Positions 17,827 to 63,781 of a DNA stretch of 64,000 bases are shown here, in pieces. The stretch is taken from positions 558,001 through 622,000 of the forward strand of contig NZ_BSTS01000001.1 in assembly GCF_030269665.1 (NCBI RefSeq). The letters are read 5' to 3'. How positions within the stretch are numbered: position 1 is the first letter of the stretch; each line of letters starts with the position of its first letter. The translations under genes and the position numbers were made by a program. The notes below the pieces were generated by a model. The model saw only the letters and a list, made by a program, of their open reading frames with translations. It ran no database searches and was not told the origin of the DNA. Origin of the DNA: Actinomycetospora sp. NBRC 106375. GTDB lineage: Bacteria > Actinomycetota > Actinomycetes > Mycobacteriales > Pseudonocardiaceae.

Positions 17827-17872
17827 TATGTGAGTAGTTGGCGCCCCGATAGGGGCCCCAACTACTCACATA
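17827..17872. terminator. Bidirectional terminator hairpin of the TGTGAG-foot family (member 1)
   Basis: Arms 17827-17847 and 17852-17872 pair at 20 of 21 positions around a GATA loop. The base of the stem is TATGTGAG, followed by TAGTTGGCGCCCC. It lies between the convergent icmF and WS/DGAT genes, 4 bp after one stop. The TAG stop of the minus-strand gene lies inside the arm. No T-tract is present. Confidence 0.85.
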
Positions 17873-19220
17873 ACGAGGCGAGCTGGGCGTCGAGGGCGGC
17901 GACGAAGCGGTCGACGCCGGCTTCGCCGCCGAGGATCGCCGTGTCGGCCCGGACCCCGAGGCGCACGCGCCCGGCGTAGCTCAGGATCGAGACGCCGAGG
18001 GCGAGGTCCCCGGAGCAGGGCACCCAGAACAGGGCGTCGCGGACGCGCGTGCCGGCGATCGTCAGCGGCGCGACCGGGCCCGGCACGTTCGAGATGATCA
18101 CCGACGAGGTCGTCGCGTAGCGGGCCACGAGCGCCCGGGTCCACTCCGGCCGTCCGTGCCCCGACCCGGCGATCCCCGCGAAGGTGGCCAGGGCCTGGTC
18201 GGTGCGCTTGATCGTCGCCATCGCGGCGTGCACCCGCTCCACGCGCCGCCCCGGGTCGGGCTCGTCGGTGGGCAGGGGCGGGAGCACGAGCCCCACCTCG
18301 TTGCCGAGCTCGTCGGAGATCGGGCGGTCCAGCGGGCGCATGTTGATCGGCATCACGGCGCGCAGGCGCGGGGTGTTCTCGCCGAGGAACTCCCGCAGCG
18401 CCCCGGCGATGGCGGCGCAGAGGACGTCGTTGACGCTGCCGCCGGCGGGCTTGCCGGCGGCCTTCACCGTCTCCAGCGGCACCATCGACGTCCACCGCGC
18501 CGACTTCGCCGGGCCCGGTCGGCCCTGCAGCGCCGAGGGCGGGTCCTGCGGCGGGCGGGTGAGCATCGCCGTCGAGGTCCGCACCGCCCGGCCGGTGGCA
18601 CGCAGCTCGGCGGCCCCCTCCGACGTCCCGGCCGCCCGGACCTTCCCGCGCAGGTCGGCGACCCGCTGGCGCGCCTCCCGGTGCAGCAGGCGCCAGTCGT
18701 GGGCACGGCGCGGGCGGCGGGGGGCCTCGGCGTAGGCGGTCGGTGTCCCCTCGGCGGCCGGCTCGTCGGCGAGCACGTGGAACAGATGGTTCAGCGCGAC
18801 ACCGTCGGCGAGGCCGTGGTGGATGTTGACGAGCAGCGCCGACCCGTCACCCCGGTAGCCCGTCACGAGGTGCAGCGACCACCACGGCCGGTCCGCGGGC
18901 AGCGGCTCGGACATGGCGGCACCGACATGACGGGCGAGGGCGGCGTCGTCACCCGGCGCGGGGAGTGCGACGGTCCGGACGTGCTCGTCCAGGTCCGGCG
19001 CGGCGTCGACCCACCGAGCCGGGCCGAGCTGCCCGACCGTCCACGTCGGCCGCTGCCGCAGCCCGGGATAGGCGGCGACCCAGCGGTCCTGGACGCGCTC
19101 GCGCAGCGCGTCCAGGTCCACCGGCCCCTCGCAGAAGAGGATCCCGTGCACCACCATCCGGTTGGTGGGCTGCTCGAGCTGCAGCCACGCGGTGTCGATG
19201 CCCGACGCCCATCGGTCCAC
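17862..19220 (-). CDS. Wax ester synthase/diacylglycerol acyltransferase (WS/DGAT)
   Basis: A 452-residue member of the bacterial WS/DGAT family with the active-site motif HHxxxDG as HHGLADG at residues 134-140. The C-terminal half contains VNDVLCAAIAGAL and SNVPGP. It esterifies fatty alcohols or diacylglycerol with acyl-CoA to form storage lipid. The GTG at 19220 is preceded by GGAGGACC. The last codons (LCE and the TAG) are encoded inside the shared terminator arm. The promoter region is shared with the divergent gene at 19295 and holds a palindrome at 19250. Confidence 0.9.
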   Translation of the reverse strand: MDRWASGIDTAWLQLEQPTNRMVVHGILFCEGPVDLDALRERVQDRWVAAYPGLRQRPTWTVGQLGPARWVDAAPDLDEHVRTVALPAPGDDAALARHVGAAMSEPLPADRPWWSLHLVTGYRGDGSALLVNIHHGLADGVALNHLFHVLADEPAAEGTPTAYAEAPRRPRRAHDWRLLHREARQRVADLRGKVRAAGTSEGAAELRATGRAVRTSTAMLTRPPQDPPSALQGRPGPAKSARWTSMVPLETVKAAGKPAGGSVNDVLCAAIAGALREFLGENTPRLRAVMPINMRPLDRPISDELGNEVGLVLPPLPTDEPDPGRRVERVHAAMATIKRTDQALATFAGIAGSGHGRPEWTRALVARYATTSSVIISNVPGPVAPLTIAGTRVRDALFWVPCSGDLALGVSILSYAGRVRLGVRADTAILGGEAGVDRFVAALDAQLASLCE

Positions 19221-19249
19221 GGGGGTGGTCCTCCGATCACACGAGAATG

Positions 19250-19268
19250 CCGGTACCGACGGTATCGG
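19250..19268. promoter_or_regulatory. Operator-like palindrome between the WS/DGAT and metal-receptor-like genes
   Basis: CCGGTACC-GAC-GGTATCGG is an inverted repeat with one mismatch (core TACCGACGGTA), placed 27 bp before the ATG at 19295 and 30 bp before the divergent GTG. The size suits a TetR-type dimer site. No TetR gene lies next to it. Confidence 0.45.
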
Positions 19269-19294
19269 ATGTCTCGCGGTGGCACGCTGGGGGC

Positions 19295-20080
19295 ATGAAC
19301 GCCGGCATGTACGTGCGGGACGACGAGGACCGCCGCGTCCCGCTCCCCGAGACCGTCCGGCGCGTGGTCAGCCTCGTCCCCTCGCTCACCGAGGCCGTGG
19401 GCGTCACCGCGCCCGGCCTGCTCGTCGGGGCGACCGACTGGTGCACGCACCCGCCCGACCTCGACGACCACGACGTCACGCGCGTGCGGGGGACGAAGAA
19501 CCCCGACATCGACACGATCGTCGGCCTGCGCCCCGACCTCGTGCTCGCCAACGCCGAGGAGAACAAGCCCGGCGAGCTGGAGAAGCTGCGCGCGGCCGGC
19601 CTCGCCGTCTACGTCACCGACATCCGGACCGTGGACGGGGCGTTGCGCTCGCTGGAGCGGATGCTCGCCGCGTGCGGGCTCGAGCGCCCGGCCTGGATCG
19701 ACGGGGCGCGCGCCGCCTGGGACACCCTCCCGCTGCCCGAGACGCCGCGACGCGCCGTCGTGCCGATCTGGCGCAAGCCGTGGATGGCGGTCGGCTCGGA
19801 CACGTTCACGGGCGCGGTCCTCGACCGCCTGGGCGTGGAGAACGTGCTCGGCGACAGCCCCGAGCGCTACCCGCGCTTCGACCCCGCCGACCTGCCCGCG
19901 CACGACCTCGTCGTGCTGCCCGACGAGCCGTACACGTTCACCGCCGAGGACGGGCCGGAGAGCTTCGCGGCGCCGTCGGCGCTGGTCAGCGGGCGCCTGC
20001 TCACCTGGTACGGGCCCAGCCTGCTCGAGGCCGCCCGGGTCCTGCCCGAGCAGCTCGGGGTGACATCGCTCAGGCCATAG
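19295..20080 (+). CDS. Cytoplasmic helical-backbone metal-receptor-like protein (BtuF/FhuD fold)
   Basis: A 261-residue protein with the fold of periplasmic B12/siderophore-binding proteins (RVVSLVPSLTEAV, TKNPDIDTIVGLRPDLVLAN, then the long helix). It lacks a signal peptide and lipobox, so it should stay in the cytoplasm. No ABC transporter is adjacent. A second in-frame ATG lies at 19307. Cobalamin-related handling is possible given nearby icmF but unproven. The stop lies one base from the convergent SDR stop. Confidence 0.75.
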   Translation: MNAGMYVRDDEDRRVPLPETVRRVVSLVPSLTEAVGVTAPGLLVGATDWCTHPPDLDDHDVTRVRGTKNPDIDTIVGLRPDLVLANAEENKPGELEKLRAAGLAVYVTDIRTVDGALRSLERMLAACGLERPAWIDGARAAWDTLPLPETPRRAVVPIWRKPWMAVGSDTFTGAVLDRLGVENVLGDSPERYPRFDPADLPAHDLVVLPDEPYTFTAEDGPESFAAPSALVSGRLLTWYGPSLLEAARVLPEQLGVTSLRP

Positions 20081-20081
20081 C

Positions 20082-20843
20082 TCAGGTCGTCGTGACGCCG
20101 CCGTCGACGGTCAGCGTGGTGCCCGTGACGTAGGACCCGGCGTCGGACACGAGGAACACCAGGGCCGCCGCGAGCTCCTCCGGATCGCCGATCCGGTTGG
20201 CGAGGACCCGCGGCATCATCGTCTCGAGGTAGCCCTCGTGGTAGCTGTCGGTCATCTCCGAGGTGAAGAAACCGGGCGCGAGGGCGTTGACGCGGATGCC
20301 CTTGCGGCCGGTCCACTGCTGGGCGAGGTCGCGGGTCAGGCCGAGCAGGCCCGCCTTCGACGCCGAGTACGCGGCCTGCGGCAGGGCCGCCGTGGTCAGG
20401 CCCAGGATGCTCGAGACGTTGACGATCGCGCTGCCGGGCGCCATGTGGTGCGCGACGGCCTGCGCCATCCAATAGCAGCCGTTGAGGTTGATGTCGATCA
20501 CCTCGCGGAACTGCTCCGGCGTCTCCTTCGTCGCGGGGTAGGCGGTGCCGATCCCGGCGTTGTTGACCAGGATGTCGAGGCGTCCGAGCTCGTTCACCGC
20601 GGCGTCGGCGAGCGCGCGGCAGTCCTCGGGCGAGGCGACGTCGGTGCGCACGGTGACCGCTCGGCGCCCGCGCTCCTCGACGGCCTTGCGCGTGTCCTCC
20701 AGCTTCTCGGTGCGCCGCGCGCCCAGCACGACGTCGGCGCCGGCCTCGGCCAGCGCGGTGGCGAACACGGCACCGAGCCCGGAACTGGCGCCGGTGATCA
20801 CGGCGACGCGGTCGTCGAGGCGGAAGCGATCGAGGATGCCCAT
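20082..20843 (-). CDS. Short-chain dehydrogenase/reductase (classical SDR)
   Basis: A 253-residue SDR with the NAD(P)-binding TGASSGLG motif near residue 18, NNAG in the middle, the catalytic Ser in NVSSILG, the YSASK pair, and PGFFTSEM after it. The C-terminal VDGGVTTT is typical of the FabG-like group. The ATG is at 20843. Substrate unknown. Confidence 0.85.
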   Translation of the reverse strand: MGILDRFRLDDRVAVITGASSGLGAVFATALAEAGADVVLGARRTEKLEDTRKAVEERGRRAVTVRTDVASPEDCRALADAAVNELGRLDILVNNAGIGTAYPATKETPEQFREVIDINLNGCYWMAQAVAHHMAPGSAIVNVSSILGLTTAALPQAAYSASKAGLLGLTRDLAQQWTGRKGIRVNALAPGFFTSEMTDSYHEGYLETMMPRVLANRIGDPEELAAALVFLVSDAGSYVTGTTLTVDGGVTTT

Positions 20844-20870
20844 GGCCGAGGGACCGTAGCGGTCCGTGCC

Positions 20871-20876
20871 TAGGCT
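20871..20876 (+). promoter_or_regulatory. -10 element TAGGCT upstream of the AEC transporter
   Basis: Six nt after TAGGCT lies GTG at 20883, which opens a four-codon frame (V-V-G-T) whose TGA overlaps the transporter GTG at 20894 as GTGA. The transcript may therefore start on a mini-leader ORF. Confidence 0.4.
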
Positions 20877-20893
20877 CGTCGGGTGGTCGGCAC

Positions 20894-21811
20894 GTGAGCG
20901 GTGTGGTCGAGGGCTTCGTCGTCATCGGCGTCGTCGTCGCCGTGGGGATCCTCGTGGGGCGCCTCGGGGTGCTCCCCGACGGGGCCACGGAGGTCCTGTC
21001 CCGGACGGCGTTCTTCGTGGCGAGCCCCGCGCTGCTCTTCGTCACGCTGCTGCGGGCGGACGTGGCGCGGGTCCTGTCGACGGGGCTCGTCGTCACCGCC
21101 CTCGCGGCGGTGGCGGTGTGCCTGCTCTACGTGCCGATCGGGATGCTGCGGCGCCGGCCGCGCGGCGAGACGGTCGTCGGATCGATGGCGAGCGGCTACC
21201 TCAACGCCGGCAACCTCGGCCTGCCGATCGCCACCTACGCGCTCGGCAGCGCCGCCGAGATCGCGCCGGCCCTGATCTTCCAGCTGGCGGTGCTCACGCC
21301 GGCCTACACGACGCTGCTGGACGCCGTCGCCGCCCGTCGCCGCGGGGAGTCCGCGGGTCTCGGCGGGGCGCTGCTGGCGCCGCTGCGCAACCCGTTGCTG
21401 ATCGCGACGGTGGCGGGCCTCGCGCTGAACGTGGCCGGGGTCCGGGTGCCCGGGAGCCTGCTCGAACCCGTCGAGCTGCTGGCCGACCTGGCGGTGCCGG
21501 CGATGCTGCTGGCCTTCGGGCTCTCGCTGGCCCACGCCCAGCGGCCGGGCCGCGACGACGACCCCGTGTGCCTGGGCGCGGTGATCGTGCTGAAGAACCT
21601 CGCGCATCCCGTCATCGCCTGGGGACTGGGCCTGGCGTTCGGCCTCGCGGGCCCGGCGTTGCTGACCGTCGTGGTCAGCGCCGCCCTGCCCACGGCCCAG
21701 AACGTCTTCGGGTACGCGGTGCGCTTCGACACCGGCGTCGCCCTGGCCCGCGACGCCGCCCTGCTCACGACCCTGCTCAGCGTCCCGGTGCTGCTGGTGG
21801 TGGCGCTGTAG
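20894..21811 (+). CDS. AEC family transporter (auxin efflux carrier type)
   Basis: A 305-residue integral membrane protein with about ten hydrophobic segments and the conserved AEC regions SGYLNAGNLGLPIATYALG and ALPTAQNVFGYA. Bacterial members export or import small carboxylates such as malate. The GTG is chosen by homology start and by overlap with the mini-leader stop. It is followed immediately by a perfect palindromic terminator. Confidence 0.85.
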   Translation: MSGVVEGFVVIGVVVAVGILVGRLGVLPDGATEVLSRTAFFVASPALLFVTLLRADVARVLSTGLVVTALAAVAVCLLYVPIGMLRRRPRGETVVGSMASGYLNAGNLGLPIATYALGSAAEIAPALIFQLAVLTPAYTTLLDAVAARRRGESAGLGGALLAPLRNPLLIATVAGLALNVAGVRVPGSLLEPVELLADLAVPAMLLAFGLSLAHAQRPGRDDDPVCLGAVIVLKNLAHPVIAWGLGLAFGLAGPALLTVVVSAALPTAQNVFGYAVRFDTGVALARDAALLTTLLSVPVLLVVAL

Positions 21812-21859
21812 GTATGTGAGCGAACTTTGGTGCTATAGCACCAAAGTTCGCTCACATAC
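21812..21859. terminator. Perfect 48-bp palindromic terminator, TGTGAG-foot family (member 2)
   Basis: Positions 21812-21835 and 21836-21859 are exact reverse complements (arm begins GTATGTGAGCGAACTTTGG; centre CTATAG). It begins at the base after the AEC stop codon and ends 4 bp before the stop codon of the convergent MFS gene. The TGTGAG base is shared with members 1, 3 and 4 while the inner stem differs completely. Confidence 0.9.
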
Positions 21860-21863
21860 GAAG

Positions 21864-23072
21864 TCAGGCGGGCACCAGCTCGCGGGTCTCATCGGGCGCC
21901 TCGGCGGCCGCCGACCGGCGGCGGCCGCGGACCTCGAGGCCGCCGGACAGCGCCAGGACGGCGAGGCCGACGACGGCGAGGGCGGCGCCGACGATCGTGG
22001 GGGCGAGGTAGCCGAGGCCGGCCGCGATGACCATGCCGCCCAGCCACGCGCCCAGCGAGTTGGCGATGTTCGACGCCGACTGGATGGCCGCCGACGCCAC
22101 GGTGGGCGCCTCGCCGACGAGGTCGAGGATGCGGGTCTGGATCGCCGGGCCGAGGGCCAGCGAGAACATGCCGGCGCCGAACAGCGAGAGCACCGCGAGC
22201 ACCGGGTGGTGCACGGTGACGACGAAGCTCACGAGCACACCGGCCAGCGCGAGCAGGCAGACGTAGAGCGTGCCGAGCGGGGCGCGGTCGGCGGCGCGGC
22301 CGCCGAGCACCGAGCCGGCGGTCATGCCGAGGCCGACGACGGCGAGCAGCAGCGTCACCGTGGCGGTGGAGAACCCGCCGACCTCGGTGAGCATCGGCGT
22401 CACGTAGCTGTAGCAGGCGAACATCGCACCGAAGCCGAACACCACGGCCGCCAGGGAGAGCACGACCTGCGGCTGGCGCAGGGCCGCGACCTCGCCGCGC
22501 AGGGCGCCCTTGCCGGTCGCGGCGGGCGCGGCGGCGGGGACGAACGCGGCGACGGCGCCGAGGGCGACGAGCCCGATCACGCCGACGACGGCGAAGGTGG
22601 CGCGCCAGCCGGCGGCCTGGCCGAGCAGCGTCGCGAGCGGCACGCCGACGACGTTGGCGACGGTCAGGCCGAGGAAGACCCGCGAGACGGCGGTGGCGCG
22701 GCGGTCGCGGCCGACCATGGCCGCGGCGGTCACCGACGCGAGGCCGAAGAAGGCGCCGTGCGGCAGGCCGGTGAGGAAGCGGACGACCATGAGCGACCCG
22801 ATCCCGGGCGCGATCGCCGAGGCGAGGTTGCCGACGGCGAACACGCCCATGAGGGCCATGAGGACGGGGCGGCGGGGCAGCTTGACGGTCGCGCCGGCGA
22901 GCAGGGGTGCGCCGACGACGACGCCGGCGGCGTAGGCGGACACGAGGTGGCCGGCCTCGCTGAGCGGCACACCGAGATCGCCCGCGACCTCGGGCAGCAA
23001 GCCCATGATCACGAACTCGGTGGTGCCGATGCCGAAGGTGCCCAGGGCGAGGGCGAGCAGAGCCAGAGGCAC
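21864..23072 (-). CDS. MFS transporter, DHA1 (AraJ/Cmx-like) family
   Basis: A 402-residue 12-helix transporter. [18 protein letters not shown] in helix 1 and [16 protein letters not shown] in helix 2 are typical of the arabinose/chloramphenicol-type exporters. The C-terminus is short and charged (RGRRRS). It is divergent from a LysR regulator, the classic arrangement for a regulated exporter, and shares a palindromic region with it. Confidence 0.87.
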
Positions 23073-23140
23073 GGGGAGCTCCTCGGGGGTGGACGACTGG
23101 TCTTCATCCGGTCGCCATCCACCGTGCGAGCCCAGGAGCC

Positions 23141-23177
23141 ATAAGTCGAAGTAGCTTCTCGTCAGAAGTCATAAGCT
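23141..23177. promoter_or_regulatory. LysR operator region and leaderless -10 of the regulator
   Basis: Overlapping palindromes GAAG-TAG-CTTC (23148-23158) and CTTCT-CGTC-AGAAG (23155-23168) lie between ATAAG direct repeats at 23141 and 23171. TAAGCT (23172-23177) sits 6 nt before the LysR ATG. LysR proteins bind such T-rich inverted repeats and repress themselves. AT content is clearly above the surroundings. Confidence 0.5.
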
Positions 23178-23183
23178 GAGCTG

Positions 23184-25819: not shown

Positions 25820-26231
25820 GGTCCGGGGTCTGTTGCAGCGAACGGGTATGTCACTGCTTCTAGGCGTCGGAAGTCCCCGTTGATCACTGCGATCGACCGA
25901 ACCCCCACATGCACGAACCGGCGCCCCGTGATCGGGACGCCGGTTCGTGATCTGGGAGGAAGTGTCAGCTCGGGACCCGCACGGTCCCGGTCGTCCCACC
26001 GACCGCCTGCATGCGCTCAGCGGCGTGGAGTCTGCTGTCGATCAGCTCCCGTGCGCGGTGCGGCGCCGGGTCGACCGGGTCCTCGTGATGCGGTGCGGGG
26101 TGTTCCCTGCGTCCAATCCATCACCTCGATCCGGTCGGAGACCATCGGTCGTGACTGCGGCGGATCAGCCCTCAGCTCGTGTGATCGTCACCACAACGAC
26201 ACGACCGAACATACTCCCGTGACCGGGCCGG
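25820..26231. other. 412-bp gene-poor stretch
   Basis: Composition here is visibly less GC-rich than the neighbours. It contains a 16-bp-arm hairpin (25912-25949). A minus-strand frame ends at TGA 25965-25967 and reads coding-like (RARELIDSRLHAAERMQAV) but has no start codon before an upstream stop. I see no intact gene; a decayed gene is possible. Confidence 0.5.
25912..25949. terminator. Hairpin in the gap after the SDR gene
   Basis: CACGAACCGGCGCCCC (25912-25927) pairs with 25934-25949 with one mismatch around a 6-nt loop. It is 93 bp beyond the SDR stop and can terminate from either side. Confidence 0.6.
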
Positions 26232-26758: not shown

Positions 26759-27697
26759 GTGCGAGCCATCGGAGTGAACTCATACGGAGGGCCCGACGCC
26801 CTCGAGGTCGTCGAGCTGCCCGAGCCCCACGCCGGGCCCGGCGAGGTGCGGCTGCGGGTGCGTGCGGCCGCGGTCAACCCGACCGACACGCTCGCTCGGG
26901 ACGGGTCGCGGGCCGAACGCCAGCGCAAGGACCCGCCGCCCTACGTGCCGGGCATGGACGCGGCCGGCGAGGTCGACGAGATCGGCGAGGGCACCGACAC
27001 CGAGCTGCACGTCGGCGACGCCGCGATGGCGATCGTCGTCCCCGACGGCAGCCACGGCGCGTACGCCGAGCAGGTCGTGGTGCCGGCCGGGTCAGTGGTG
27101 CGGGCGCCGGCCGGTGCGTCGGCGGCGGAGGCGGCGACGCTGCCGATGAATGCGCTGACCGCGCGCCTGGCCCTCGACACCCTGGCGCTGCAGCCGGGCG
27201 CCACGGTCGCGGTGACGGGGGCGGCGGGGGCGCTCGGTGGCTACGTGGTGCAGCTCGCGAAGGCCGACCGGCTCACCGTCGTCGCGGACGCGTCGGAGGC
27301 CGACGAGTCGCTGGTGCGCGGGCTCGGCGCCGACGTCGTCGTGCGCCGCGGCGACGACGTGGCCGCCCGCATCCGCGAGAGCCAGCCCGGCGGCGTGGAC
27401 GCGCTGGTCGACGGATCGCTGCAGGGCGACGCCCTGCTCGACGCCCTCCGGGACGGGGGCGGGATCGCCACGGTCCGCGGCCACCGGGGCGCCGACGAGC
27501 GGGGCATCACGTGGCACCCGGTGCTCGTGCGCGACGTCGCCACCGACCACGCCGCACTCGACCGGCTGCGGCGCCAGTGCGACGAGGGCGCGCTGACCCT
27601 GCGCGTCGCGGACACGATCCCCGCCGAGAAGGCGGCCGAGGCCCACCGCCGCCTCGAGGCCGGCGGCGTCCGCGGCCGGCTCGTCCTGACGTTCTGA
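26759..27697 (+). CDS. NADPH:quinone reductase-like zinc-independent MDR oxidoreductase
   Basis: A 312-residue medium-chain reductase: GroES-like half (YGGPDALEVVELPEP, AAAVNPTDTLARDG, VPGMDAAGEV), then a Rossmann domain with VTGAAGALGGYVVQLAK near residue 145. No zinc-ligand pattern is present. Such enzymes reduce quinones or enones with NADPH. It ends 8 bp before a member of the terminator family. Confidence 0.85.
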   Translation: MRAIGVNSYGGPDALEVVELPEPHAGPGEVRLRVRAAAVNPTDTLARDGSRAERQRKDPPPYVPGMDAAGEVDEIGEGTDTELHVGDAAMAIVVPDGSHGAYAEQVVVPAGSVVRAPAGASAAEAATLPMNALTARLALDTLALQPGATVAVTGAAGALGGYVVQLAKADRLTVVADASEADESLVRGLGADVVVRRGDDVAARIRESQPGGVDALVDGSLQGDALLDALRDGGGIATVRGHRGADERGITWHPVLVRDVATDHAALDRLRRQCDEGALTLRVADTIPAEKAAEAHRRLEAGGVRGRLVLTF

Positions 27698-27705: not shown

Positions 27706-27745
27706 GTGAGCAGTTGCGTGCCCTACGGGGCCCGCAACTGCTCAC
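27706..27745. terminator. Bidirectional terminator hairpin, TGTGAG-foot family (member 3)
   Basis: Arms 27706-27723 and 27728-27745 pair at 17 of 18 positions around TACG. The right-hand foot continues as CTCACATG while the left is CGTGAG. It separates the convergent reductase and Nramp-like genes. Confidence 0.8.
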
Positions 27746-27752: not shown

Positions 27753-29045
27753 CTAGCCGAAGGTGTCCATCAGCTCGGTCACGCAGAGCACGAGGAACAG
27801 GACCGCGGCGCCGACGAGCAACGTCGTCGAGAGCCACCCGTTGCGCCACTCCCGTGGGGCGCGGCTGCTGCCGAGCAGCCACAGCAGCGTGATCGCCAGG
27901 AACGGCATGAAGAACGCCCCGAGCGCGCCGTAGGCGACGACCAGCGCGAACGGCCGGCCGAGGAACAGCAGCAGCATCGGCGGGAACGTCAGCCACAGCA
28001 GGTAGGCGCGGAACGGGAGGCTGCGCTCGGCGTCCTCGTGGAGCTGGCCCGCGGCGGCCAGCTCGTCGGGGGTCCTCGCGACGGCCTCGCGCCGGGTCCG
28101 CACGAAGTCGGTGACCATGAGGCTCACGCCCTGCCAGACCCCGAGCAGCGACGAGAACGACGTCGCGAAGAACCCGACGAGGAACAGCGTCGCGATCACC
28201 GGGCCGAAGCGCTGGGAGAGGATCGCGTCGAGGTCGAGCAGGCCGCGGTCGCTCTCGACGAGCGCGATGTTGGCCGTGTAGAGCAGCTCGGCGCCGACGA
28301 CCAGCATCGCGGCCACGAAGATCCCCGTGGTGATGTAGGCGACGCGGTTGTCCAGGCGCATGACCTTCATCCACGAGCTGTCCCGCCAGCCCTTGGCGTT
28401 GACCCAGTAGCCGTACGCGGCCATCGTCACCGTGCCGCCGACGCCGCCGACCAGCCCGAGCGTGTAGATCCCCGAACCCGCCGGCAGCTTCGGGACCAGG
28501 CCGGCGAGCATGGCGGGCACGTCGGGCAGCACGAGGATCGCGAGGCCCACCACGACGACGAACATGACGCCCACCAGGACCGTCATGATCTTCTCGAACA
28601 GCGGGTACGAGCCGAACCACACGAGCACGAGCCCCACCAGCCCGCACGGGATGCCCCACGCCGGGATCGAGCCGCCGAACATCGCCGCGAGCGGCAGCGC
28701 CGAGGACGTCATCGCCGTCGCGCCGTAGACGAAGCCCCAGATGGCCACGTAGACGACGAAGTACACCGTCGTCCACGGGCCGAGCGAGCGCCAGCCCGCG
28801 AAGATCGTCGAGCCGGTCGCGAGGTGCCAGCGTCCCGTGGCCTCGGCCAGCGCGATCTTGACGATCACACCGACGACCACGGCCCACAGCAGCGTGTAGC
28901 CGTACTCCGAGCCGGCGACGAGCGTCGCGACGAGATCGCCCGCGCCGACACCTGTCGCCGCGACGACGATCCCCGGCCCGACGATGCTCCAGCGCCGTCG
29001 CGGCGTCTCGGTGGTGTCCGCGGCGTCGACCTCACGATCGGTCAT
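27753..29045 (-). CDS. Nramp-like metal ion transporter with non-canonical metal site
   Basis: A 430-residue protein with about eleven membrane helices and the Nramp signature regions. Helix 1 reads VGAGDLVATLVAGSEYGYTL where canonical Nramp has DPGN, and helix 6 reads TVTMAAYGYW where canonical has MPHN. The ligands for Mn/Fe are therefore not conserved, and the substrate may be another ion or metabolite. The upstream esterase gene, 32 bp away on the same strand, may be co-transcribed. Confidence 0.75.
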   Translation of the reverse strand: MTDREVDAADTTETPRRRWSIVGPGIVVAATGVGAGDLVATLVAGSEYGYTLLWAVVVGVIVKIALAEATGRWHLATGSTIFAGWRSLGPWTTVYFVVYVAIWGFVYGATAMTSSALPLAAMFGGSIPAWGIPCGLVGLVLVWFGSYPLFEKIMTVLVGVMFVVVVGLAILVLPDVPAMLAGLVPKLPAGSGIYTLGLVGGVGGTVTMAAYGYWVNAKGWRDSSWMKVMRLDNRVAYITTGIFVAAMLVVGAELLYTANIALVESDRGLLDLDAILSQRFGPVIATLFLVGFFATSFSSLLGVWQGVSLMVTDFVRTRREAVARTPDELAAAGQLHEDAERSLPFRAYLLWLTFPPMLLLFLGRPFALVVAYGALGAFFMPFLAITLLWLLGSSRAPREWRNGWLSTTLLVGAAVLFLVLCVTELMDTFG

Positions 29046-56347: not shown

Positions 56348-58396
<2,049 letters not shown>

Positions 58397-58428: not shown

Positions 58429-58731
58429 TCATGCGATCGGGTCGTGCACGGTGACGAGCTTGGTGCCGTCCGGGAACGTCGCCTCGACCGCGACCGTCGG
58501 CAGCATCTCGGGCACGCCGTCCATGACGTCCTCGCGGGTGAGGACCTTCTGCCCGTCGCTCATGAGGTCGGCGACGCTGCGACCGTCGCGGGCCCCTTCG
58601 AGGATCCAGGAGGTCAGCAGCGCCACCGTCTCGGGGTGGTTGAGCCGCAGTCCCCGGGCGCGGCGGTCGCGGGCGAGGCCCGCGGCGACGTGCACCAGGA
58701 GCTTCTCCTGCTCGTGGGGGGACAGCAGCAC
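58429..58731 (-). CDS. ureA: Urease gamma subunit
   Basis: Exactly 100 residues from GTG 58731, the standard UreA length: [18 protein letters not shown], then [21 protein letters not shown] and [25 protein letters not shown] (58737-58741) lies 5 nt upstream and decides this start over GTG 58746. It is first in the operon. Confidence 0.92.
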
Positions 58732-58783
58732 GGGGACCTCCGGCACGGCGGGGAGAGCAGCAGGGTCAGCGGCGGGTCACCGC

Positions 58784-58815
58784 ACGCTAGGCGCCCCGTG
58801 TTACCGGGATGTTGA
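58784..58815 (-). promoter_or_regulatory. Urease operon promoter with GlnR-like box
   Basis: On the minus strand TAGCGT (58789-58784) is a good -10. TCAAC-N6-GTAAC (58815-58800) lies just upstream and resembles the half-site spacing of GlnR boxes (GTnAC-N6-GAAAC). Nitrogen control of urease by GlnR is known in actinomycetes. The match is imperfect. Confidence 0.35.
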
Positions 58816-58816
58816 A

Positions 58817-59398
58817 TCACACGACGAACGCGAGGAGCAGCACGGCCACGCCGGCGGGCACGTCGAGCGCCACGCAGGCCTCGGCCAGCGACGGCGAGAC
58901 GTCGCCACGGTGGCTGCGCAGGTGCCAGAGATCCCACGCCCCGTGCCCGAGGAGGGCGAGCGCCGCGACGGCGAGTCCGGGCCCGGGCGGGACGCTGAGG
59001 GCCACCAGGACGAGAGCTCCGTAGAGCACCAGGCCCGCCGTCTGGCGGGCCAGTGCCGGGCGTGCGGCACCGCGCACGATCCCGACGCCCACCAGCACCA
59101 CGGCGGCCACCCCGTTGGTCAGCAGCGGCGGGACGTCGAGCAGCCGCGACGCCACGACCAGCCCGGTCCCGACCAGGCACCACGCCCAGGCCATCCAGGG
59201 CCGGGAGAAGGCGACGGCGGCGAGGTAGCAGGACACGGCGATCGCGACCCCGACCGCGACGTCGTCGGGCCCGAGCGGGCCGGTCAGCACGATCGCGGCG
59301 GCGGCGAGGAGCCCGACCGCGATCGGCCAGCGGCGCCGGAGGACGGCCGGCACGCGGTGGAGGCGGGTGGGGCGGGCGGTGGTGCTGTGGGTGCTCAC
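58817..59398 (-). CDS. Multi-pass membrane protein of unknown function
   Basis: A 193-residue protein with about six hydrophobic helices (WPIAVGLLAAAAIVL, VAVGVAIAVSCYLAAV, LLGHGAWDLWHLRS) from GTG 59398. It is separated from ureA by 85 bp containing the urease promoter, so it is transcribed separately. A small-molecule channel or scaffold cannot be distinguished; no family assigned. Confidence 0.6.
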   Translation of the reverse strand: MSTHSTTARPTRLHRVPAVLRRRWPIAVGLLAAAAIVLTGPLGPDDVAVGVAIAVSCYLAAVAFSRPWMAWAWCLVGTGLVVASRLLDVPPLLTNGVAAVVLVGVGIVRGAARPALARQTAGLVLYGALVLVALSVPPGPGLAVAALALLGHGAWDLWHLRSHRGDVSPSLAEACVALDVPAGVAVLLLAFVV

Positions 59399-59495
59399 GG
59401 CCGCGACGATGGACCCGCGACGAATACCCCCGGGGCGTATCCGACAGGCTGGTCCGGATTCCTGCGCACCCCGTCCGGACGGACCGGCCCGGCGC

Positions 59496-59501
59496 TAGGC
59501 T
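59496..59501 (+). promoter_or_regulatory. -10 element TAGGCT, leaderless promoter of the GlxA-like regulator
   Basis: GCGGGCC (7 nt) separates TAGGCT from GTG 59509, the same layout as at 10735. Confidence 0.5.
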
Positions 59502-59508
59502 GCGGGCC

Positions 59509-60471
59509 GTGGACCCGAGCGTGGCGGTCATCGCCTACGAGGACGCGGAACTGCTCGACGTCTCCTGCGTGACGACGACGTTCTCGGTGGCCGGCGACCT
59601 CGGTGCCACCCCGCGCTACGCGGTGCGCCTGCTCACGCCGGGCGGGCGCACGGTCACCTGCCGGCCCGGGCTGCGCCTCGAGGCGCACGGCGCGCTCGAG
59701 CGGCACACCGCGCCGGTCGACACGCTCGTCGTGGTCGGCGGGATGGGCAGCGACGCCGCGGCGGGCGACGAGACCCTCGTGGCCCACGTCCGGCGTCTCG
59801 CCCGTGATGCGCGCCGGGTGGCGTCGGTGTGCACCGGCGCCAGCGTCCTCGCCGCCGCGGGCCTCCTCGACGGGCGCCGCGCCACGACCCACTGGGGGTT
59901 CGCCGCCCGCCTCGCGCGCGAGCACCCCGCGGTCGCCGTCGACCCGGGACCGATCTTCGTGCGCGACGGCCGCATCGCCACCTCGGCCGGCGTCACCAGC
60001 GCGCTGGACCTCACGCTCTCGTTCGTCGCCGAGGACCACGGCCCCGCGCTCGCGCGGCGGGCGGCGCAGGCGCTCGTCACCTACCTGCAGCGTCCGGGCA
60101 CCCAGGCGCAGATGAGCCTCCACGTCGCGGCGCCGGCCCCCGCCGACGACGTGGTGCGCGGCGTCGTCGAGCACGTCGCGGAGCACCTCGACGGCGACCT
60201 CGGCGCACCGGCCCTGGCCGCGCTCGCGGGCGTCAGCGAGCGTCACCTCACGCGGCTGTTCCGGGCCCACCTGGACCGCACCCCGGCCGAGCACGTGCGC
60301 CGCACGCGCACCGAGGCCGCGGCCCACCTGCTGGCCACCACCGAGGTGCCGCTGGCCCGGGTCGCGGCGCGCTGCGGCTTCCGGTCGACCGAGACGATGC
60401 GCACCGCGTTCCTCGATGCCTTCGGCCGCACGCCCTCCGAGCACCGGCGCGCCTTCGCGGTCGCGTCCTGA
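59509..60471 (+). CDS. GlxA-type AraC family regulator with DJ-1/PfpI domain
   Basis: A 320-residue regulator: an N-terminal class I glutamine amidotransferase-like domain (SVAVIAYEDAELLDVSC, VASVCTGASVLAAAGLL, TTHWGF) and a C-terminal double AraC helix-turn-helix (LAALAGVSERHLTRLFRAHL, VARVAARCGFRSTETMRTAF). The cysteine of VCTGA is present, though related regulators are not enzymes. It may sense a quaternary amine or similar metabolite. GTG chosen by the leaderless -10. Confidence 0.88.
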   Translation: MDPSVAVIAYEDAELLDVSCVTTTFSVAGDLGATPRYAVRLLTPGGRTVTCRPGLRLEAHGALERHTAPVDTLVVVGGMGSDAAAGDETLVAHVRRLARDARRVASVCTGASVLAAAGLLDGRRATTHWGFAARLAREHPAVAVDPGPIFVRDGRIATSAGVTSALDLTLSFVAEDHGPALARRAAQALVTYLQRPGTQAQMSLHVAAPAPADDVVRGVVEHVAEHLDGDLGAPALAALAGVSERHLTRLFRAHLDRTPAEHVRRTRTEAAAHLLATTEVPLARVAARCGFRSTETMRTAFLDAFGRTPSEHRRAFAVAS

Positions 60472-60473
60472 TC

Positions 60474-61424
60474 TCAGCCGAGCGCGGACCCGCCGGCGCG
60501 CAACGGCCGCGGCGGCTCGCAGGCCTGCTCGTGGTCGGCGTGCTCGGGCGCCTCGACCTGCAGCGTGCTGTGGTGCAGGCCGAAGCGGTCACGGAGCAGG
60601 GTCGTCGCGCGGTCGAGCACCCCGTGCTCGCCGCAGTCGGCGGTGGTGCAGCCCTCGTCGGAGATGACGAGGTGCGCCGAGACGGCGGGGCTGCGGTCGT
60701 TGATGGACCAGACGTGCAGGTCGTGGACCTCGGCGACGCCCTCGACCTCGAGCAGCACGGCGTGCACCTCGTCGACGTCGATGCCGGCCGGCGTGCCCTC
60801 GAGCAGGACGTGGCCGGTCTCGCGCAGCAGGGCCACAGTGCGGGGCAGCAGGATCGCGACGATCACGAGCGAGGCGATCGTGTCGGCGTAGGCCCAGCCC
60901 GTCGTGAGCGTCACGGCGGCCGCGGCGAGCACCGCCACCGAGCCGAGCGCGTCGCCCAGCACGTGCAGGGCCGCGCCGCGCACGTTCATCCCGCCGCTGC
61001 CGCGCTGCAGCACGACGAGCGCGACGAGGTTGCCGACCAGGCCGACGAGACCGTAGAGCAGCAGGCCACCGCCGGGCACCTCGGTGGGCGTGACGAGGCG
61101 CTCGACCGCCTCGATCGCGACCCACACGGTGACGCCGAGCAGCAGCACCGCGTTCAGCGCGGCGCCGAGCACCTCGGCGCGCCCGAGCCCGAAGGTGCGG
61201 CGCCGGCTCGGGGGGCGGGCCGCGAGCGCCGAGGCGGCGAGCGCGGTGGCGAGGGCGACGACGTCGGTGCCGACGTGCCCGAGGTCGGCGAGCAGGGCCA
61301 GGGAGCCGGTGACGACCGCCCCGACGGCGCCGACCACGAGGACCAGGGCGGTGATGCCCAGGGCGAGCCCGAGCCGGCGGCGGTCGTCGCCGCCGTGCCC
61401 GCCGTGTCCGTGCCCGTGTCCCAC
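60474..61424 (-). CDS. Cation diffusion facilitator (CDF) metal exporter
   Basis: A 316-residue CzcD/ZitB-like exporter: a His-rich start (GHGHGHGGHGG), six helices with LLADLGHVGTD (the HxxxD zinc site) and HVLGDALGSVAV, and a cytoplasmic ferredoxin-like domain with VHDLHVWSI. It exports Zn(II) and related ions. GTG 61424 begins at the His-rich motif; the frame is open to 61454 through an AT-rich palindromic region that is more likely operator. Confidence 0.87.
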   Translation of the reverse strand: MGHGHGHGGHGGDDRRRLGLALGITALVLVVGAVGAVVTGSLALLADLGHVGTDVVALATALAASALAARPPSRRRTFGLGRAEVLGAALNAVLLLGVTVWVAIEAVERLVTPTEVPGGGLLLYGLVGLVGNLVALVVLQRGSGGMNVRGAALHVLGDALGSVAVLAAAAVTLTTGWAYADTIASLVIVAILLPRTVALLRETGHVLLEGTPAGIDVDEVHAVLLEVEGVAEVHDLHVWSINDRSPAVSAHLVISDEGCTTADCGEHGVLDRATTLLRDRFGLHHSTLQVEAPEHADHEQACEPPRPLRAGGSALG

Positions 61425-61432
61425 GTCCCGGA

Positions 61433-61454
61433 CAATACATGCAGACATTCGCAT
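61433..61454. promoter_or_regulatory. Metal-sensor operator-like sequence upstream of the CDF gene
   Basis: AATACATGCAGACATT (61434-61449) is an imperfect palindrome in an AT-rich patch, extended by CGCATA. It resembles the alternating A/T half-sites of ArsR/SmtB metal sensors. It lies 10 bp from the CDF start. No ArsR gene is in the window. Confidence 0.35.
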
Positions 61455-61494
61455 ACGGCGGCCGGTGTGCGGCGTGCCTCGGTTCCGCCGGTCC

Positions 61495-61500
61495 TAGAGT
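61495..61500 (+). promoter_or_regulatory. -10 element TAGAGT of the methyltransferase gene
   Basis: Six nt separate TAGAGT from GTG 61507. GTG 61501 follows it directly, so the -10 position favours the later start. Confidence 0.45.
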
Positions 61501-61506
61501 GTGCCG

Positions 61507-62142
61507 GTGACCGAGAACCCCTGGCTCGCCGTCACCGGCGGGACCGCCGGACCGGGGTACGCCCAGCGGTTCGCCGCGCTCGAGGCGCAGGGCGAGGACC
61601 TGCACGGGGAGGCCCGGCGCGTCCAGGCCCTGCTCGGTGAGCGGCCCTCCGACGTCCTCGACGCCGGGTGCGGCACCGGGCGCGTCGCCATCCACCTCGC
61701 CCGTCTCGGGCACCGGGTCGTGGGCGCCGACCTCGACCCCTCGATGCTCGCCGAGGCACGTGCGGCGGCCCCCGGGATCGAGTGGCACCTCGTGGATCTG
61801 GTCGACCTGCACCTCGGGCACCCGGTCGACGCCGTCGTCGCCGCGGGCAACCTGTGGCCGCTGCTGACCCCGGGCACCCACGCGCGCGTGATCGCCGTCC
61901 TCGCCCGGCACCTGCGTCCCGGCGGGCTCCTCGTCGCCGGGTTCGGGCTCGACGCCGCGCACGTGCCGTTCACCCTGCCCGACGGCGTCGCCTTCCCGAC
62001 GCTCGACGACTACGACGGCGCCTGCCGCGGCGCCGGCCTCGTCCGCACCCACCGCACCGCCGACTGGGACGGCGCCGAGCCCTACGCCGGCGGGGGCTAC
62101 GCGGTCAGCGTGCACGCCCGGACCGGAGGGACCGCGCCGTGA
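61507..62142 (+). CDS. Class I SAM-dependent methyltransferase
   Basis: A 211-residue methyltransferase: SAM motif VLDAGCGTGRVAIHLA near residue 51, acidic loop VGADLDPSML, then PGGLLVAGFGL. The compact size fits small-molecule methylation. GTG 61501 would add two residues. Its TGA overlaps the antiporter GTG (GTGA), so the pair is coupled. Confidence 0.85.
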   Translation: MTENPWLAVTGGTAGPGYAQRFAALEAQGEDLHGEARRVQALLGERPSDVLDAGCGTGRVAIHLARLGHRVVGADLDPSMLAEARAAAPGIEWHLVDLVDLHLGHPVDAVVAAGNLWPLLTPGTHARVIAVLARHLRPGGLLVAGFGLDAAHVPFTLPDGVAFPTLDDYDGACRGAGLVRTHRTADWDGAEPYAGGGYAVSVHARTGGTAP

Positions 62143-63728
62143 CCGAGACCGACCCGCGCGCCCTCCTGCTGGTCTTCGTCCTCGCCCTCGCCGTCACCGC
62201 CGTCGCGCGCCGGTTCTCGCTCTCGGCGCCGCTGCTGCTCGTCGTCGTCGGGCTCGCGGTCTCCTTCGTGCCCGGCATGCCCGCGGTGCCCCTCGACCCC
62301 GACCTCGTGCTGTTCCTCGTCCTGCCGCCGCTGCTCTACTCGGCCTCGCTCGAGAGCTCGACGCTGCGGCTGCGGGAGAACATCAAGCGGATCAGCCAGC
62401 TGGCGGTCGGGCTGGTCGTGTTCTCCACCGCGGTGGTCGGGGTGGCGGCGTGGTTCCTCGTGCCCGAGCTGCCGCTGGCGAGCGCCCTCGTGCTCGGGGC
62501 CGTCGTCGCGCCGCCGGACGCGGTGGCGGCCGCATCCATCGGCCGCAGGCTCGGGCTCCCCCGGCGGATCATGGCGATCCTCGAGGGCGAGAGCCTGCTC
62601 AACGACGCGACCGCCCTGACCCTGTTCCGGGTGCTGCTCGCCGCCGCGATGTCGACGACCACGGTCAGCACCGGGGCGACGGTCCTCGAGGGGCTCGGGG
62701 AGTTCGCGCTCGCGGCCGTGGGCGGGGTCCTCATCGGCGCGGCCGCGGGCTGGCTGCTCCACCAGGTGCGCCTGCGGCTGCACGACGGCGTGCTGGAGAG
62801 CTCGGTCGGCCTGCTCGTCCCGTTCGTGATCTACCTGCTCGCCGAGGAGCTGCACACCTCCGGGGTGCTCGCCGTCGTCGTCGCCGGGCTCTACCTCGGG
62901 CACAAGGCCACCGAGGCCGGCTACGCCACGCGGCTGCAGGACCAGGCGGTGTGGAAGGCGCTCGACACGCTGCTCGAGGCGCTGGTGTTCGGCCTCATCG
63001 GGCTCCAGCTGCGGATCGTCGTCGACGGCCTCGGCACCGACGCCGGCCGGATCCTGCTGGTCTCGCTCGCCCTGCTCGTCGTGACGATCCTGGCCCGGTT
63101 CGTCTTCGTGTTCCCCACGATCTACCTGTCCCGGCTGATCCCGCAGGTCCGGCGGCGCGGCCCCGCGCTGTCCTGGCGGGGCCCGTTCGTCATCTCGTGG
63201 GCCGGGATGCGCGGGGTGGTCACGCTGGCGGCCGCCTTCGCGATCCCGGCGGGCGTCGACGGCATGCCCGGGCGCGACGTCGTCGTGTTCGCGGCCTTCG
63301 TCATCACCGTCGGGACGCTGCTGGTCCAGGGCCTCACCCTGCCCGCGCTGATCCGCCGCCTGCGCGTCCGCGACCAGGGCGGCCAGCGCGACGTCCTCGA
63401 CGAGGCCGCGGTGAAGCAGGCGGCCGCCGAGGCCGCCATCGCGCGGCTCGACGACCTCGCCGACGACGGCACCCCGGCCCACGTCACCGAGCAGCTGCGC
63501 ACGTGGGCGCAGCACCGGTCGAACGGCGCGTGGGAACGCCTCGGGCGCTCCGACGACGAGATCGGCGAGGCCCCGTCGGTGGCGTTCACCCGCCTGCGCC
63601 GCGAGATGCTCACCGCCGAGCGCGCGACGTTCGTGCGCTTCCGCGACATGGGGCGGATCGACGAGGGCATCCTGCGCGACATGCTCCGCGAGCTGGACTA
63701 CGAGGAGGCCATGCTCGACCGGGGCTGA
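62139..63728 (+). CDS. Na+/H+ antiporter, CPA1 family
   Basis: A 529-residue antiporter with 12-13 helices: GAVVAPPDAVAAASIGRRLG and ILEGESLLNDATALTLFRV carry the ion-binding Asp and ND motif, and SWAGMRGVVTLAAAFAIP lies near the end of the membrane domain. A cytoplasmic helical tail of about 110 residues (from VRDQGGQRDVLDEAAV) may be regulatory. It exchanges sodium or potassium for protons. Confidence 0.9.
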   Translation: MTETDPRALLLVFVLALAVTAVARRFSLSAPLLLVVVGLAVSFVPGMPAVPLDPDLVLFLVLPPLLYSASLESSTLRLRENIKRISQLAVGLVVFSTAVVGVAAWFLVPELPLASALVLGAVVAPPDAVAAASIGRRLGLPRRIMAILEGESLLNDATALTLFRVLLAAAMSTTTVSTGATVLEGLGEFALAAVGGVLIGAAAGWLLHQVRLRLHDGVLESSVGLLVPFVIYLLAEELHTSGVLAVVVAGLYLGHKATEAGYATRLQDQAVWKALDTLLEALVFGLIGLQLRIVVDGLGTDAGRILLVSLALLVVTILARFVFVFPTIYLSRLIPQVRRRGPALSWRGPFVISWAGMRGVVTLAAAFAIPAGVDGMPGRDVVVFAAFVITVGTLLVQGLTLPALIRRLRVRDQGGQRDVLDEAAVKQAAAEAAIARLDDLADDGTPAHVTEQLRTWAQHRSNGAWERLGRSDDEIGEAPSVAFTRLRREMLTAERATFVRFRDMGRIDEGILRDMLRELDYEEAMLDRG

Positions 63729-63733
63729 CCTGA

Positions 63734-63781
63734 CCATGTGAGTGGTTGGCGCCCCCATAGGGGCGCCAACCACTCACGTGG
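63734..63781. terminator. Bidirectional terminator hairpin, TGTGAG-foot family (member 4)
   Basis: Arms 63734-63755 and 63760-63781 pair along 22 positions with one U-G wobble, around a CATA loop. The stem reads ATGTGAGTGGTTGGCGCCCC; compared with member 1 it shows an A-T to G-C compensated change (GTAG/CTAC to GTGG/CCAC). The stop codon of the minus-strand gene (TGA 63776-63774) is inside the foot. Confidence 0.88.

What the first reader, a model, noticed from the sequence alone, without database searches (positions are those of the whole stretch)
17827..63781. A family of four convergent-gene hairpins with identical geometry and a constant TGTGAG foot
Hairpins at 17827-17872, 21812-21859, 27706-27745 and 63734-63781 each have 20-nt arms (counted from the ATGTGAG-type foot) and a 4-nt loop (GATA, TATA, TACG, CATA). 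All four sit between convergent genes. The foot (GTGAG on one side, CTCAC on the other) is constant, while the inner stem varies with compensatory changes: GTAG/CTAC in member 1 versus GTGG/CCAC in member 4, and an unrelated stem in member 2. None has a T-tract. A plain terminator does not need a conserved foot, so a protein or polymerase may read this sequence, or the hairpins may spread as a short element. I know of no described family with this foot.
Basis: partly seen in the sequence, partly recalled or inferred. Interest (0 to 1): 0.8.

Follow-up and report, generated by a model that had tools for sequence, protein, structure and literature searches.

The report
Stop-codon-tagged 40-base hairpin repeats
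Scattered through an actinobacterial genome are more than a hundred 40-base hairpins that sit at the very ends of genes, often supply the gene's stop codon, and tend to keep their place between species while their sequence is swapped, which looks like a new branch of the bacterial 'REP' repeats.

Summary
In this genome (an Actinomycetospora, Pseudonocardiaceae) GTGAG-N30-CTCAC occurs 139 times against 0 for the reversed pattern. In 2.12 Mb of five species only spacer 30 stands out: 47 matches, 46 palindromic. Of 54 copies, 30 lie between convergent and 17 between tandem genes; 48 lie within 15 nt of a stop codon, and in 27 the stop IS the TGA of the foot. No T-tract follows. At orthologous convergent junctions the site is mostly kept (9 of 9 and 7 of 8 genomes at hairpins 2 and 3), but both arms change together: orthologues are as unlike as random same-genome copies (0.52), the best same-genome copy 0.86. 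Other hairpins are a mixed control. Twelve of 46 family genera have 30 or more copies. An IS-like insert enters six hairpins of different stems at the same position. Best reading: a stop-codon-tagged, REP-like family without RAYT (0 of 18), kept as a two-way gene-end hairpin at convergent junctions. How it spreads is unknown.

The parts
17827..17872 (.). Hairpin 1 (core 17830-17869), arm GTGAGTAGTTGGCGCCCC (type A with one change), loop GATA, 17 of 18 pairs. The minus-strand gene ends at a TAG inside the arm (17862-17864).
21812..21859 (.). Hairpin 2 (core 21816-21855), stem type B (GTGAGCGAACTTTGGTGC, loop TATA), 18 of 18 pairs. Stops lie 4 nt (+) and 8 nt (-) away.
   Evidence: orthologous hairpin in 9 of 9 genomes compared
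27706..27745 (.). Hairpin 3, A-like arm (GTGAGCAGTTGCGTGCCC, loop TACG), 17 of 18 pairs. Stops lie 8 nt (+) and 7 nt (-) away.
   Evidence: orthologous hairpin in 7 of 8 genomes
63734..63781 (.). Hairpin 4 (core 63738-63777), A-like arm (GTGAGTGGTTGGCGCCCC, loop CATA), 18 of 18 pairs. The minus-strand gene's TGA stop (63774-63776) is the TGA of the foot.
14586..17822 (+). Gene converging on hairpin 1: B12-dependent mutase/MeaB fusion
   Evidence: gene call; Pfam MM_CoA_mutase, MeaB, B12-binding
17862..19220 (-). Gene converging on hairpin 1: wax ester synthase/DGAT
20903..21811 (+). Gene converging on hairpin 2: Mem_trans membrane transport protein
21864..23072 (-). Gene converging on hairpin 2: MFS transporter
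26774..27697 (+). Gene converging on hairpin 3: zinc-type alcohol dehydrogenase family
27753..29045 (-). Gene converging on hairpin 3: Nramp family
62139..63728 (+). Gene converging on hairpin 4: sodium/hydrogen exchanger

Best explanation
The four hairpins belong to a dispersed, REP-like family of palindromic repeats: 40-nt core, GTGAG tag paired at both ends, conserved apex, variable middle. The family is shared by a subset of genera of the Pseudonocardiaceae. Copies spread within a genome as sub-families and settle at gene 3' ends. There the foot can supply a TGA stop on either strand, so an insertion into the last codons of a gene, or between two convergent genes, is cleanly closed. At convergent junctions a hairpin is then often kept as a two-way gene-end element, most likely limiting read-through or protecting mRNA 3' ends from both sides, while its stem is overwritten or replaced by whichever sub-family is active in that lineage. 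Shown here: architecture, dispersal, stop-codon overlap, site retention at convergent junctions, stem replacement. Inferred: mobility as the source, the RNA-level job, and in-place overwriting rather than loss and re-insertion.
For: Number and length: 139 vs 0 control; only spacer 30 stands out, 46 of 47 palindromic; of 38 forty-nt palindromes (>=16/18 pairs) in 2.12 Mb, 33 begin GTGAG and 2 GTGCG. Placement: of 49 intergenic copies 45 lie within 15 nt of a stop and in 25 the stop is the foot's TGA (48 and 27 of all 54); other intergenic hairpins 32 of 80 and 0 of 80; background 261 of 2018 genes end in a GTGAG context. Site kept: convergent syntenic comparisons 24 both, 11 one only, 169 neither; 9 of 9, 7 of 8 and 5 of 9 genomes at hairpins 2, 3 and 1. 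Stem not kept: 27 orthologous pairs, inner-arm identity 0.52, random same-genome pairs 0.52, best paralogue 0.86, higher than the orthologue in 23 of 27. Turnover: 9 of 12 comparable sites are polymorphic; at junction 569 the element sits just before a former stop codon. Bursts: 4 to 147 copies within one genus, 15 to 406 in another. Printed REP behaviour matches: most conv-REPs lie <20 bp from both ORF ends in two species, and GTAG termini often provide a stop (PMC3733652 section 15). An IS-like insert targets these hairpins (6 sites, all after base 27), as some IS do with REPs (PMC1525189 abstract).
Against: No mobiliser found: Y1 transposases absent in 18 of 18 genus genomes and unrelated to copy number in 20 family genomes. 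No clear target-site duplication seen (by eye). The control by other hairpins is mixed: where both genomes have one, 11 of 21 pairs are nearly identical (0.89-1.0) but 10 of 21 differ as much as class I pairs (0.49-0.71); class I 26 pairs, mean 0.65, 5 of 26 at 0.85 or more. So change of stem is not unique to class I. The hairpin lies where a terminating ribosome would sit, a poor place for a terminator (established knowledge), and no U-tract follows. Several copies have the next start 16-20 nt away, where a strong terminator would be harmful. Stem mismatches show no clear excess of G-U on the sense strand (6 GU, 4 AC, 19 other in tandem copies). Orthologous pairs are slightly more alike than random cross-genome pairs (0.52 vs 0.43), and B, D and E stems resemble one another, so part of the change may be gradual. 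Pair counts are not independent.
Confidence: 0.55

Rival explanations
1. Purely selfish REP/MITE-like elements: an enzyme of unknown type inserts them; they survive only where harmless, i.e. at gene ends. Shared sites between species are insertion hot spots, refilled after loss.
For: Presence/absence and sub-family bursts; decayed copies with 13-15 of 18 pairs exist (11 of 54); empty sites such as G017 at hairpin 3 and G004 at hairpin 1.
Against: At convergent junctions co-occupancy is far above the occupancy rate (24 both, 11 one only, 169 neither), and no two of the 54 copies lie within 300 nt of each other, which repeated insertion at a hot spot would be expected to give now and then (G015 does have two, around an extra gene). 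No transposase identified.
Confidence: 0.25
2. Double-stranded protein-binding sites: a dimeric host protein (nucleoid protein, gyrase, regulator or recombinase) binds the two GTGAG half-sites at fixed spacing; hairpin formation is incidental.
For: Foot and total length are constant across genera with unrelated stems; in G090 8 of 14 loci have four or more mismatches in the first 19 pairs, and listed G086 copies are often mismatched. Foot and apex carry the information, the middle little.
Against: In the window's genus the variable middle is mostly paired: 111 of 117 inner-pair cells at hairpin 2, 81 of 91 at hairpin 3 (rows chosen with at least 13 of 18 pairs), which a protein contacting only the feet would not need.
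Confidence: 0.12
3. Ordinary bidirectional intrinsic terminators conserved by descent, with compensatory stem evolution.
For: Stable GC-rich hairpins between convergent genes; site often conserved in sister species. Some other hairpins of the same stretch also change stem between species (10 of 21 pairs).
Against: The same 18-nt arm recurs at unrelated loci (one sequence as 14 arms of 8 copies in the own genome); orthologues are no more alike than random same-genome copies; T-runs after the stem never exceed 2 in 108 flanks; half overlap the stop codon.
Confidence: 0.08

Closest known systems
GTAG-tagged REPs / REPINs with RAYT transposases (Di Nocera 2013, PMC3733652: abstract, passages and section 15 seen; REPIN/RAYT papers only as listings)
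   Same: Short palindromes in high copy, several sub-families per genome, located downstream of genes and between convergent genes, often <20 bp from ORF ends; the tag often supplies a stop codon (TAG there, TGA here).
   Different: Tag is GTGAG, base-paired and present at both ends instead of one unpaired GTAG; fixed 40-nt core with 4-nt loop; no Y1/RAYT gene in 18 of 18 genus genomes; Actinomycetota host.
CGTC-tagged REPs (same paper)
   Same: Dispersed palindromes that apparently lack a dedicated transposase, according to the abstract.
   Different: Tag differs; the abstract reports CGTC repeats mainly in Alphaproteobacteria.
REPs as targets of REP-recognising IS (Tobes and Pareja 2006, PMC1525189: abstract and outline seen)
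   Same: An IS-like insert enters these hairpins at one fixed position (6 of 6 places found).
   Different: The insert here was seen only by its first ~120 bases; its transposase and family are unknown.
TRIT motif of Mycobacterium (RNIE paper, not held; recalled, plus one mention of a 'TRIT model' in PMC3526491, passages only)
   Same: As recalled: dispersed conserved gene-end hairpins in a related actinobacterial family.
   Different: Could not be compared: neither its sequence nor its model was available.
Stem-loop families in mycobacteria and other bacteria (PMC2267715, passages only)
   Same: High-copy stem-loop families in high-GC Gram-positives.
   Different: No foot or fixed length described in the passages I saw.

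Membership tests
REP (broad: short dispersed extragenic palindromes) | 20-40 bp palindrome in high copy, mostly extragenic | tested here: met
   40-nt core, 139 exact-pattern copies in the own genome; 49 of 54 sampled copies outside called genes
REP (broad: short dispersed extragenic palindromes) | Located downstream of genes, near ORF 3' ends, in convergent and tandem gaps | tested here: met
   30 convergent, 17 tandem, 2 divergent, 5 in genes; 48 of 54 within 15 nt of a stop
GTAG-tagged REP super-family | Unpaired GTAG tag at one end | tested here: not met
   Tag is GTGAG, paired, at both ends
GTAG-tagged REP super-family | Associated RAYT (Y1_Tnp, PF01797) | tested here: not met
   0 of 18 genus genomes; 3 of 20 chosen family genomes, with 123, 4 and 2 hairpins
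CGTC-tagged REP super-family | CGTC tag | tested here: not met
REPIN | Pair of REPs in inverted orientation moving as a unit | tested here: inconclusive
   Elements are single palindromes in the window's genus; mismatched arms in G090 and G086 could be read as paired halves
Intrinsic terminator | GC-rich hairpin followed by a U-tract | tested here: not met
   Longest T-run in the 12 nt beyond the foot is 2 or less in 108 of 108 flanks
Intrinsic terminator | RNA 3' ends map to the hairpin | not testable with these tools
   No transcript data available
TRIT (RNIE) | Match to the published covariance model | not testable with these tools
   Paper not held; the one Rfam gathering-level match in the window lies elsewhere

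The most novel reading that the evidence does not exclude
The elements form a third tagged REP super-family in which the tag is a stop codon carried on both strands (G-TGA-G), spread by something other than a RAYT. At convergent gene ends existing hairpins are overwritten in place: one arm of an active sub-family is copied in through the shared foot, and the other arm is made by fold-back synthesis. This would give near-perfect palindromes of fixed length whose site is conserved but whose stem undergoes concerted evolution. On this view the foot is conserved because it is a stop codon and a crossover point, not because a transposase reads it.
Probability: 0.2. Interest if true: 0.82.

Novelty: new variant of a known kind. 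Interest (0 to 1): 0.6.

Why it matters
The tagged REPs surveyed in print are mostly from Proteobacteria, and the GTAG kind has its own transposases. Here is a high-copy family in Actinomycetota with a paired stop-codon tag, no RAYT, one fixed length across genera, and a telling split: the place at convergent gene ends tends to be inherited, the sequence much less so. That makes two questions testable: how tiny palindromes copy themselves without a known transposase, and whether such repeats become working gene-end signals. It also warns that 'compensatory changes' in bacterial hairpins can come from replacement of whole elements rather than from selection on base pairs. An IS-like insert that picks out the hairpin whatever its stem is a handle on how such palindromes are recognised.

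Tried and rejected
Canonical intrinsic terminator: no T-tract, wrong distance, stem not conserved by descent. RAYT/Y1-mobilised REP: 0 of 18 in the genus, 3 of 20 chosen family genomes without relation to copy number. Terminal repeats of a larger IS: a half-site search (16-nt arms, up to 2 mismatches) gave many matches that look like coding chance, decayed hairpins and contig-end copies, and no pair of half-sites facing each other across a gene that I could recognise by eye; other transposase families were not searched. Integron-type attC cassettes (recalled): stop-hugging is similar, but the sites lie singly at syntenic junctions; not tested further. Rfam: the only gathering-level match in the window is elsewhere. 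A covariance model was not built, because the stems are unrelated between sub-families and the fixed foot-plus-spacer pattern with its reversed control was the sharper test. Junction 294 is a chance match (foot not self-complementary); I dropped it, leaving 21 sites, 12 with a comparison genome (28 of 46 genome-site cells filled, counted by hand).

One search, run for the re-check, shows the control is mixed (11 of 21 pairs nearly identical, 10 of 21 not), so that argument is weakened; I left the odds as they were because the within-genome versus orthologue comparison does not rest on it. The insert in six hairpins was also found on re-check.

Limits: gene calls are my own (codon-usage script), not curated annotation. 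The 54 copies were selected by foot and by at least 13 of 18 pairs; the unfiltered check is. Genus comparisons share branches and are not independent. Searches for the family in print covered one library; the stem-letter search found two papers whose titles are on human and mouse/chicken subjects. Outside the family, (looser spacer, 16 genomes of other families of the order) shows small excesses over the control in some, e.g. 54 vs 20 in G036.
Full report
What was checked. The four hairpins are present at the stated coordinates with the stated loops and feet. Each has a 40-nt core: GTGAG + 13 nt + 4-nt loop + 13 nt + CTCAC, with 17, 18, 17 and 18 of 18 pairs. My codon-usage gene caller puts all four between convergent genes. 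In one window the loose pattern is not rare (4 found, 2.48 expected), so the test had to be genome-wide.

Genome scale. The window is C1:558001-622000 of a 6.79-Mb genome. GTGAGN{18,46}CTCAC: 283 against 47 for the reversed pattern. N{26,32}: 178 against 10. N30 exactly: 139 against 0. I then read 1.12 Mb of this genome and 160-311 kb each of four congeners, G012, G009, G005 and G011, 2.12 Mb in all. Scanning every spacer from 10 to 60, spacer 30 has 47 matches, 46 of them palindromic (at least 8 of 13 inner pairs), and no other spacer exceeds 8 matches. Turned round: of 40-nt palindromes with a 4-nt loop and at least 16 of 18 pairs, 33 of 38 begin GTGAG and 2 GTGCG. So foot and length are properties of the family, not of the search.

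Anatomy. Fifty-four copies of 38-41 nt were collected with a GTG[ACT]G foot and at least 13 of 18 pairs. In the 50 forty-mers the information per position is high in the foot beyond the searched letters (C at position 6 in 79%, always purine at 7), low in the middle (0.08-0.69 bits at positions 10-16) and high again at the apex (C at 18 in 92%, then mostly TA). Outside the foot the sequence is YAY and then near background beyond -5, so the unit is about 46 nt. Stem types recur at unrelated loci: GTGAGCAGTTGGCGCCCC occurs as 14 arms of 8 copies in the own genome. Pairing is 18 of 18 in 22 of 54 and 13-15 of 18 in 11 of 54, so there are fresh and decayed copies.

Place. 30 copies lie between convergent genes, 17 between tandem genes, 5 inside called genes, 2 divergent. 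Convergent placement exceeds the share of junctions (30 of 49 vs 16%, p 1e-12) and the share of stops (30 of 47 vs 32%, p 9e-6). 48 of 54 lie within 15 nt of a stop codon, and in 27 of 54 the stop is the TGA of the foot. Like for like, among intergenic hairpins, the figures are 45 and 25 of 49 for this family and 32 and 0 of 80 for the others. Tandem copies lie by the stop of the upstream gene; the next start can be 100 nt or more away, or only 16-20 nt. In the window, hairpin 4 supplies the TGA of the minus-strand gene and hairpin 1 its TAG. No flank has a T-run longer than 2.

Comparison between species. Median protein identity between the own region and its congeners is 85-87%. At the orthologue of hairpin 2, 9 of 9 genomes hold such a hairpin; at hairpin 3, 7 of 8; at hairpin 1, 5 of 9. 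At hairpin 2, 111 of 117 inner-pair cells are Watson-Crick and 12 of 13 inner pairs show two or more pair types, but inner-arm identity averages only 0.48; by eye five stem types occupy the one site. Over 27 orthologous pairs inner-arm identity is 0.52, equal to random pairs within one genome (0.52, 414 pairs), somewhat above random pairs between genomes (0.43, 1017 pairs) and well below the best same-genome copy (0.86; higher than the orthologue in 23 of 27). In the own lineage type A or A-like stems sit at junctions 411, 548, 558 and 623, where relatives carry other types.

A control that is mixed. Other hairpins of the same syntenic stretches: where both genomes of a pair have one, 11 of 21 pairs are nearly identical (0.89-1.0, from four junctions such as 433, 453 and 556) and 10 of 21 are not (0.49-0.71); mean 0.77. 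The GTGAG family scored the same way: 26 pairs, mean 0.65, 5 of 26 at 0.85 or more. Occupancy of both against one only: 26 and 24 for the family, 21 and 51 for the others. So the family holds its sites better and its sequence worse than other hairpins, but the contrast is one of degree.

Presence and absence. Of 21 sites with a copy (one chance match dropped), 12 have a comparison genome, and 3 of these 12 are filled in all genomes compared. For convergent junctions the pairwise table is 24 both, 11 one only, 169 neither; for tandem 3, 15, 888; divergent 1, 4, 254. No two of the 54 copies lie within 300 nt of each other; in G015 two copies stand around an extra gene at the orthologue of hairpin 1. 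Junction 569 shows a filled site in one species against short gaps in two others: the gene ends in the element's TGA, and the former TAG follows the element.

An insert that finds the hairpin. Both ends of contig C1 break off inside such hairpins at the same foreign sequence. Searching for that sequence within 5-35 bases after GTGAG gave six places in the own genome, at the ends of the two contigs whose length or start shows it (C1 and, by coordinate, C3 and C46) and in two more contigs, and none in 17 congeners. In all six the insert begins after base 27 of the hairpin, five bases past the loop, although the stems differ. In the loci held, its end occurs twice, both times in these hairpins. 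I read this as a multi-copy IS-like element that recognises the hairpin by structure, as described for REPs and certain IS (PMC1525189 abstract); its inside could not be read.

Range. G009 is Actinomycetospora lemnae: the named contig matches it at 100% and at identical coordinates, and the own genome matches at 82%; NCBI places the genus in Pseudonocardiaceae. In 150 genomes of this family from 46 genera, 31 genomes in 12 genera have 30 or more exact-length copies, up to 481, while the reversed control never exceeds 12 (counted by hand). Congeners differ strongly (4 to 147 in one genus, 15 to 406 in another). In three other genera the foot and length are the same but the stem is unrelated: GTGAGYCTTTTTGGTGGC-TATA in G046, GTGAGTGGTAAGGACGGTT-AG in G086 (partial listings), GTGAGTGCGCACACGAGTT-AG in G090 (partial listing). 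In G090, 8 of 14 loci have four or more mismatches in 19 pairs. In 128 genomes of the rest of the phylum, only four of them from the same order, the highest count is 13.

What it is. The pattern matches what Di Nocera and colleagues describe for REPs: in two species most conv-REPs lie less than 20 bp from both ORF ends, uni-REPs near the upstream gene's end, and GTAG termini often give a stop codon (section 15 of PMC3733652). Membership in their two super-families fails: the tag is GTGAG, is paired and is at both ends, and no Y1 transposase was found in 18 of 18 genus genomes. I therefore call it a REP-like family of a new, stop-codon-tagged type. That two REP tags, GTAG and GTGAG, both embed a stop codon after G suggests that the tag is shaped by tolerance at gene ends; this is inference.

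How it most likely works. Shown: fixed architecture, dispersal, stop-codon overlap, site retention at convergent junctions, replaced stems. Inferred: copies spread, insert at gene ends and are tolerated because the foot can close the frame; at convergent junctions the hairpin is useful in both directions and tends to be kept, its sequence refreshed from the active sub-family. I cannot say whether refreshment is by loss and re-insertion or by copying into the existing palindrome. The lack of clear G-U excess in stem mismatches and the tandem copies close to the next start speak against a strong terminator under RNA-level selection, so the RNA role is the weakest step.

Novelty. In the held library I found neither this foot nor this family (with the wider searches); the RNIE/TRIT paper is not held, and the TRIT comparison is open. 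I rate it a new variant of a known kind, of more than routine interest because of the site-kept, stem-swapped behaviour, the missing mobiliser and the insert that picks out the hairpin.

Noticed in passing
own genome, six places incl. both ends of contig C1 (outside the window): An IS-like insert beginning TGTCTAGTCCCATGAG sits in six GTGAG hairpins with different stems, each time after hairpin base 27; none in 17 congeners. Its transposase is unknown.
   Followed up: partly
window 13303-13353: Copy of a second dispersed palindrome family (ACGAACGGCGCTCTCGCTGC-loop-GCAGCGAGAGCGCCGTTCGT), found in several places of the own genome at varying distances past gene ends.
   Followed up: partly
window 25912-25949: Hairpin CACGAACCGGCGCCCCGTGATCGGGACGCCGGTTCGTG in a 412-nt convergent gap is identical in G012 and G011 and close in G009; in G005 another hairpin scores higher there.
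   Followed up: yes
window 57612-57907 (+): Rfam 5_ureB_sRNA match (46.4 bits) lies antisense to the minus-strand gene 56348-58396; it may reflect that gene's coding sequence rather than an sRNA.
   Followed up: no
own genome C1:184289, 488366, 553152, 553476: 37-nt imperfect GTGAGCG...CGCTCAC palindromes away from stops, two of them 324 bp apart in a near-duplicated stretch; may be a different element or operator.
   Followed up: no
own junction 612; G005 region positions 14135 and 72928: Another palindrome type, CGGTTACTGGCTCGTATCGCTCG, dispersed in the genus; it stands in place of the GTGAG hairpin at the orthologue of hairpin 1 in G005.
   Followed up: no
L201-L215 (G090), L223 and L229 (G086): In these genera the two arms of the 40-nt element often do not match in the middle, like mosaics of half-palindromes joined at a TTAGAA/TTCTAA centre.
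   Followed up: partly
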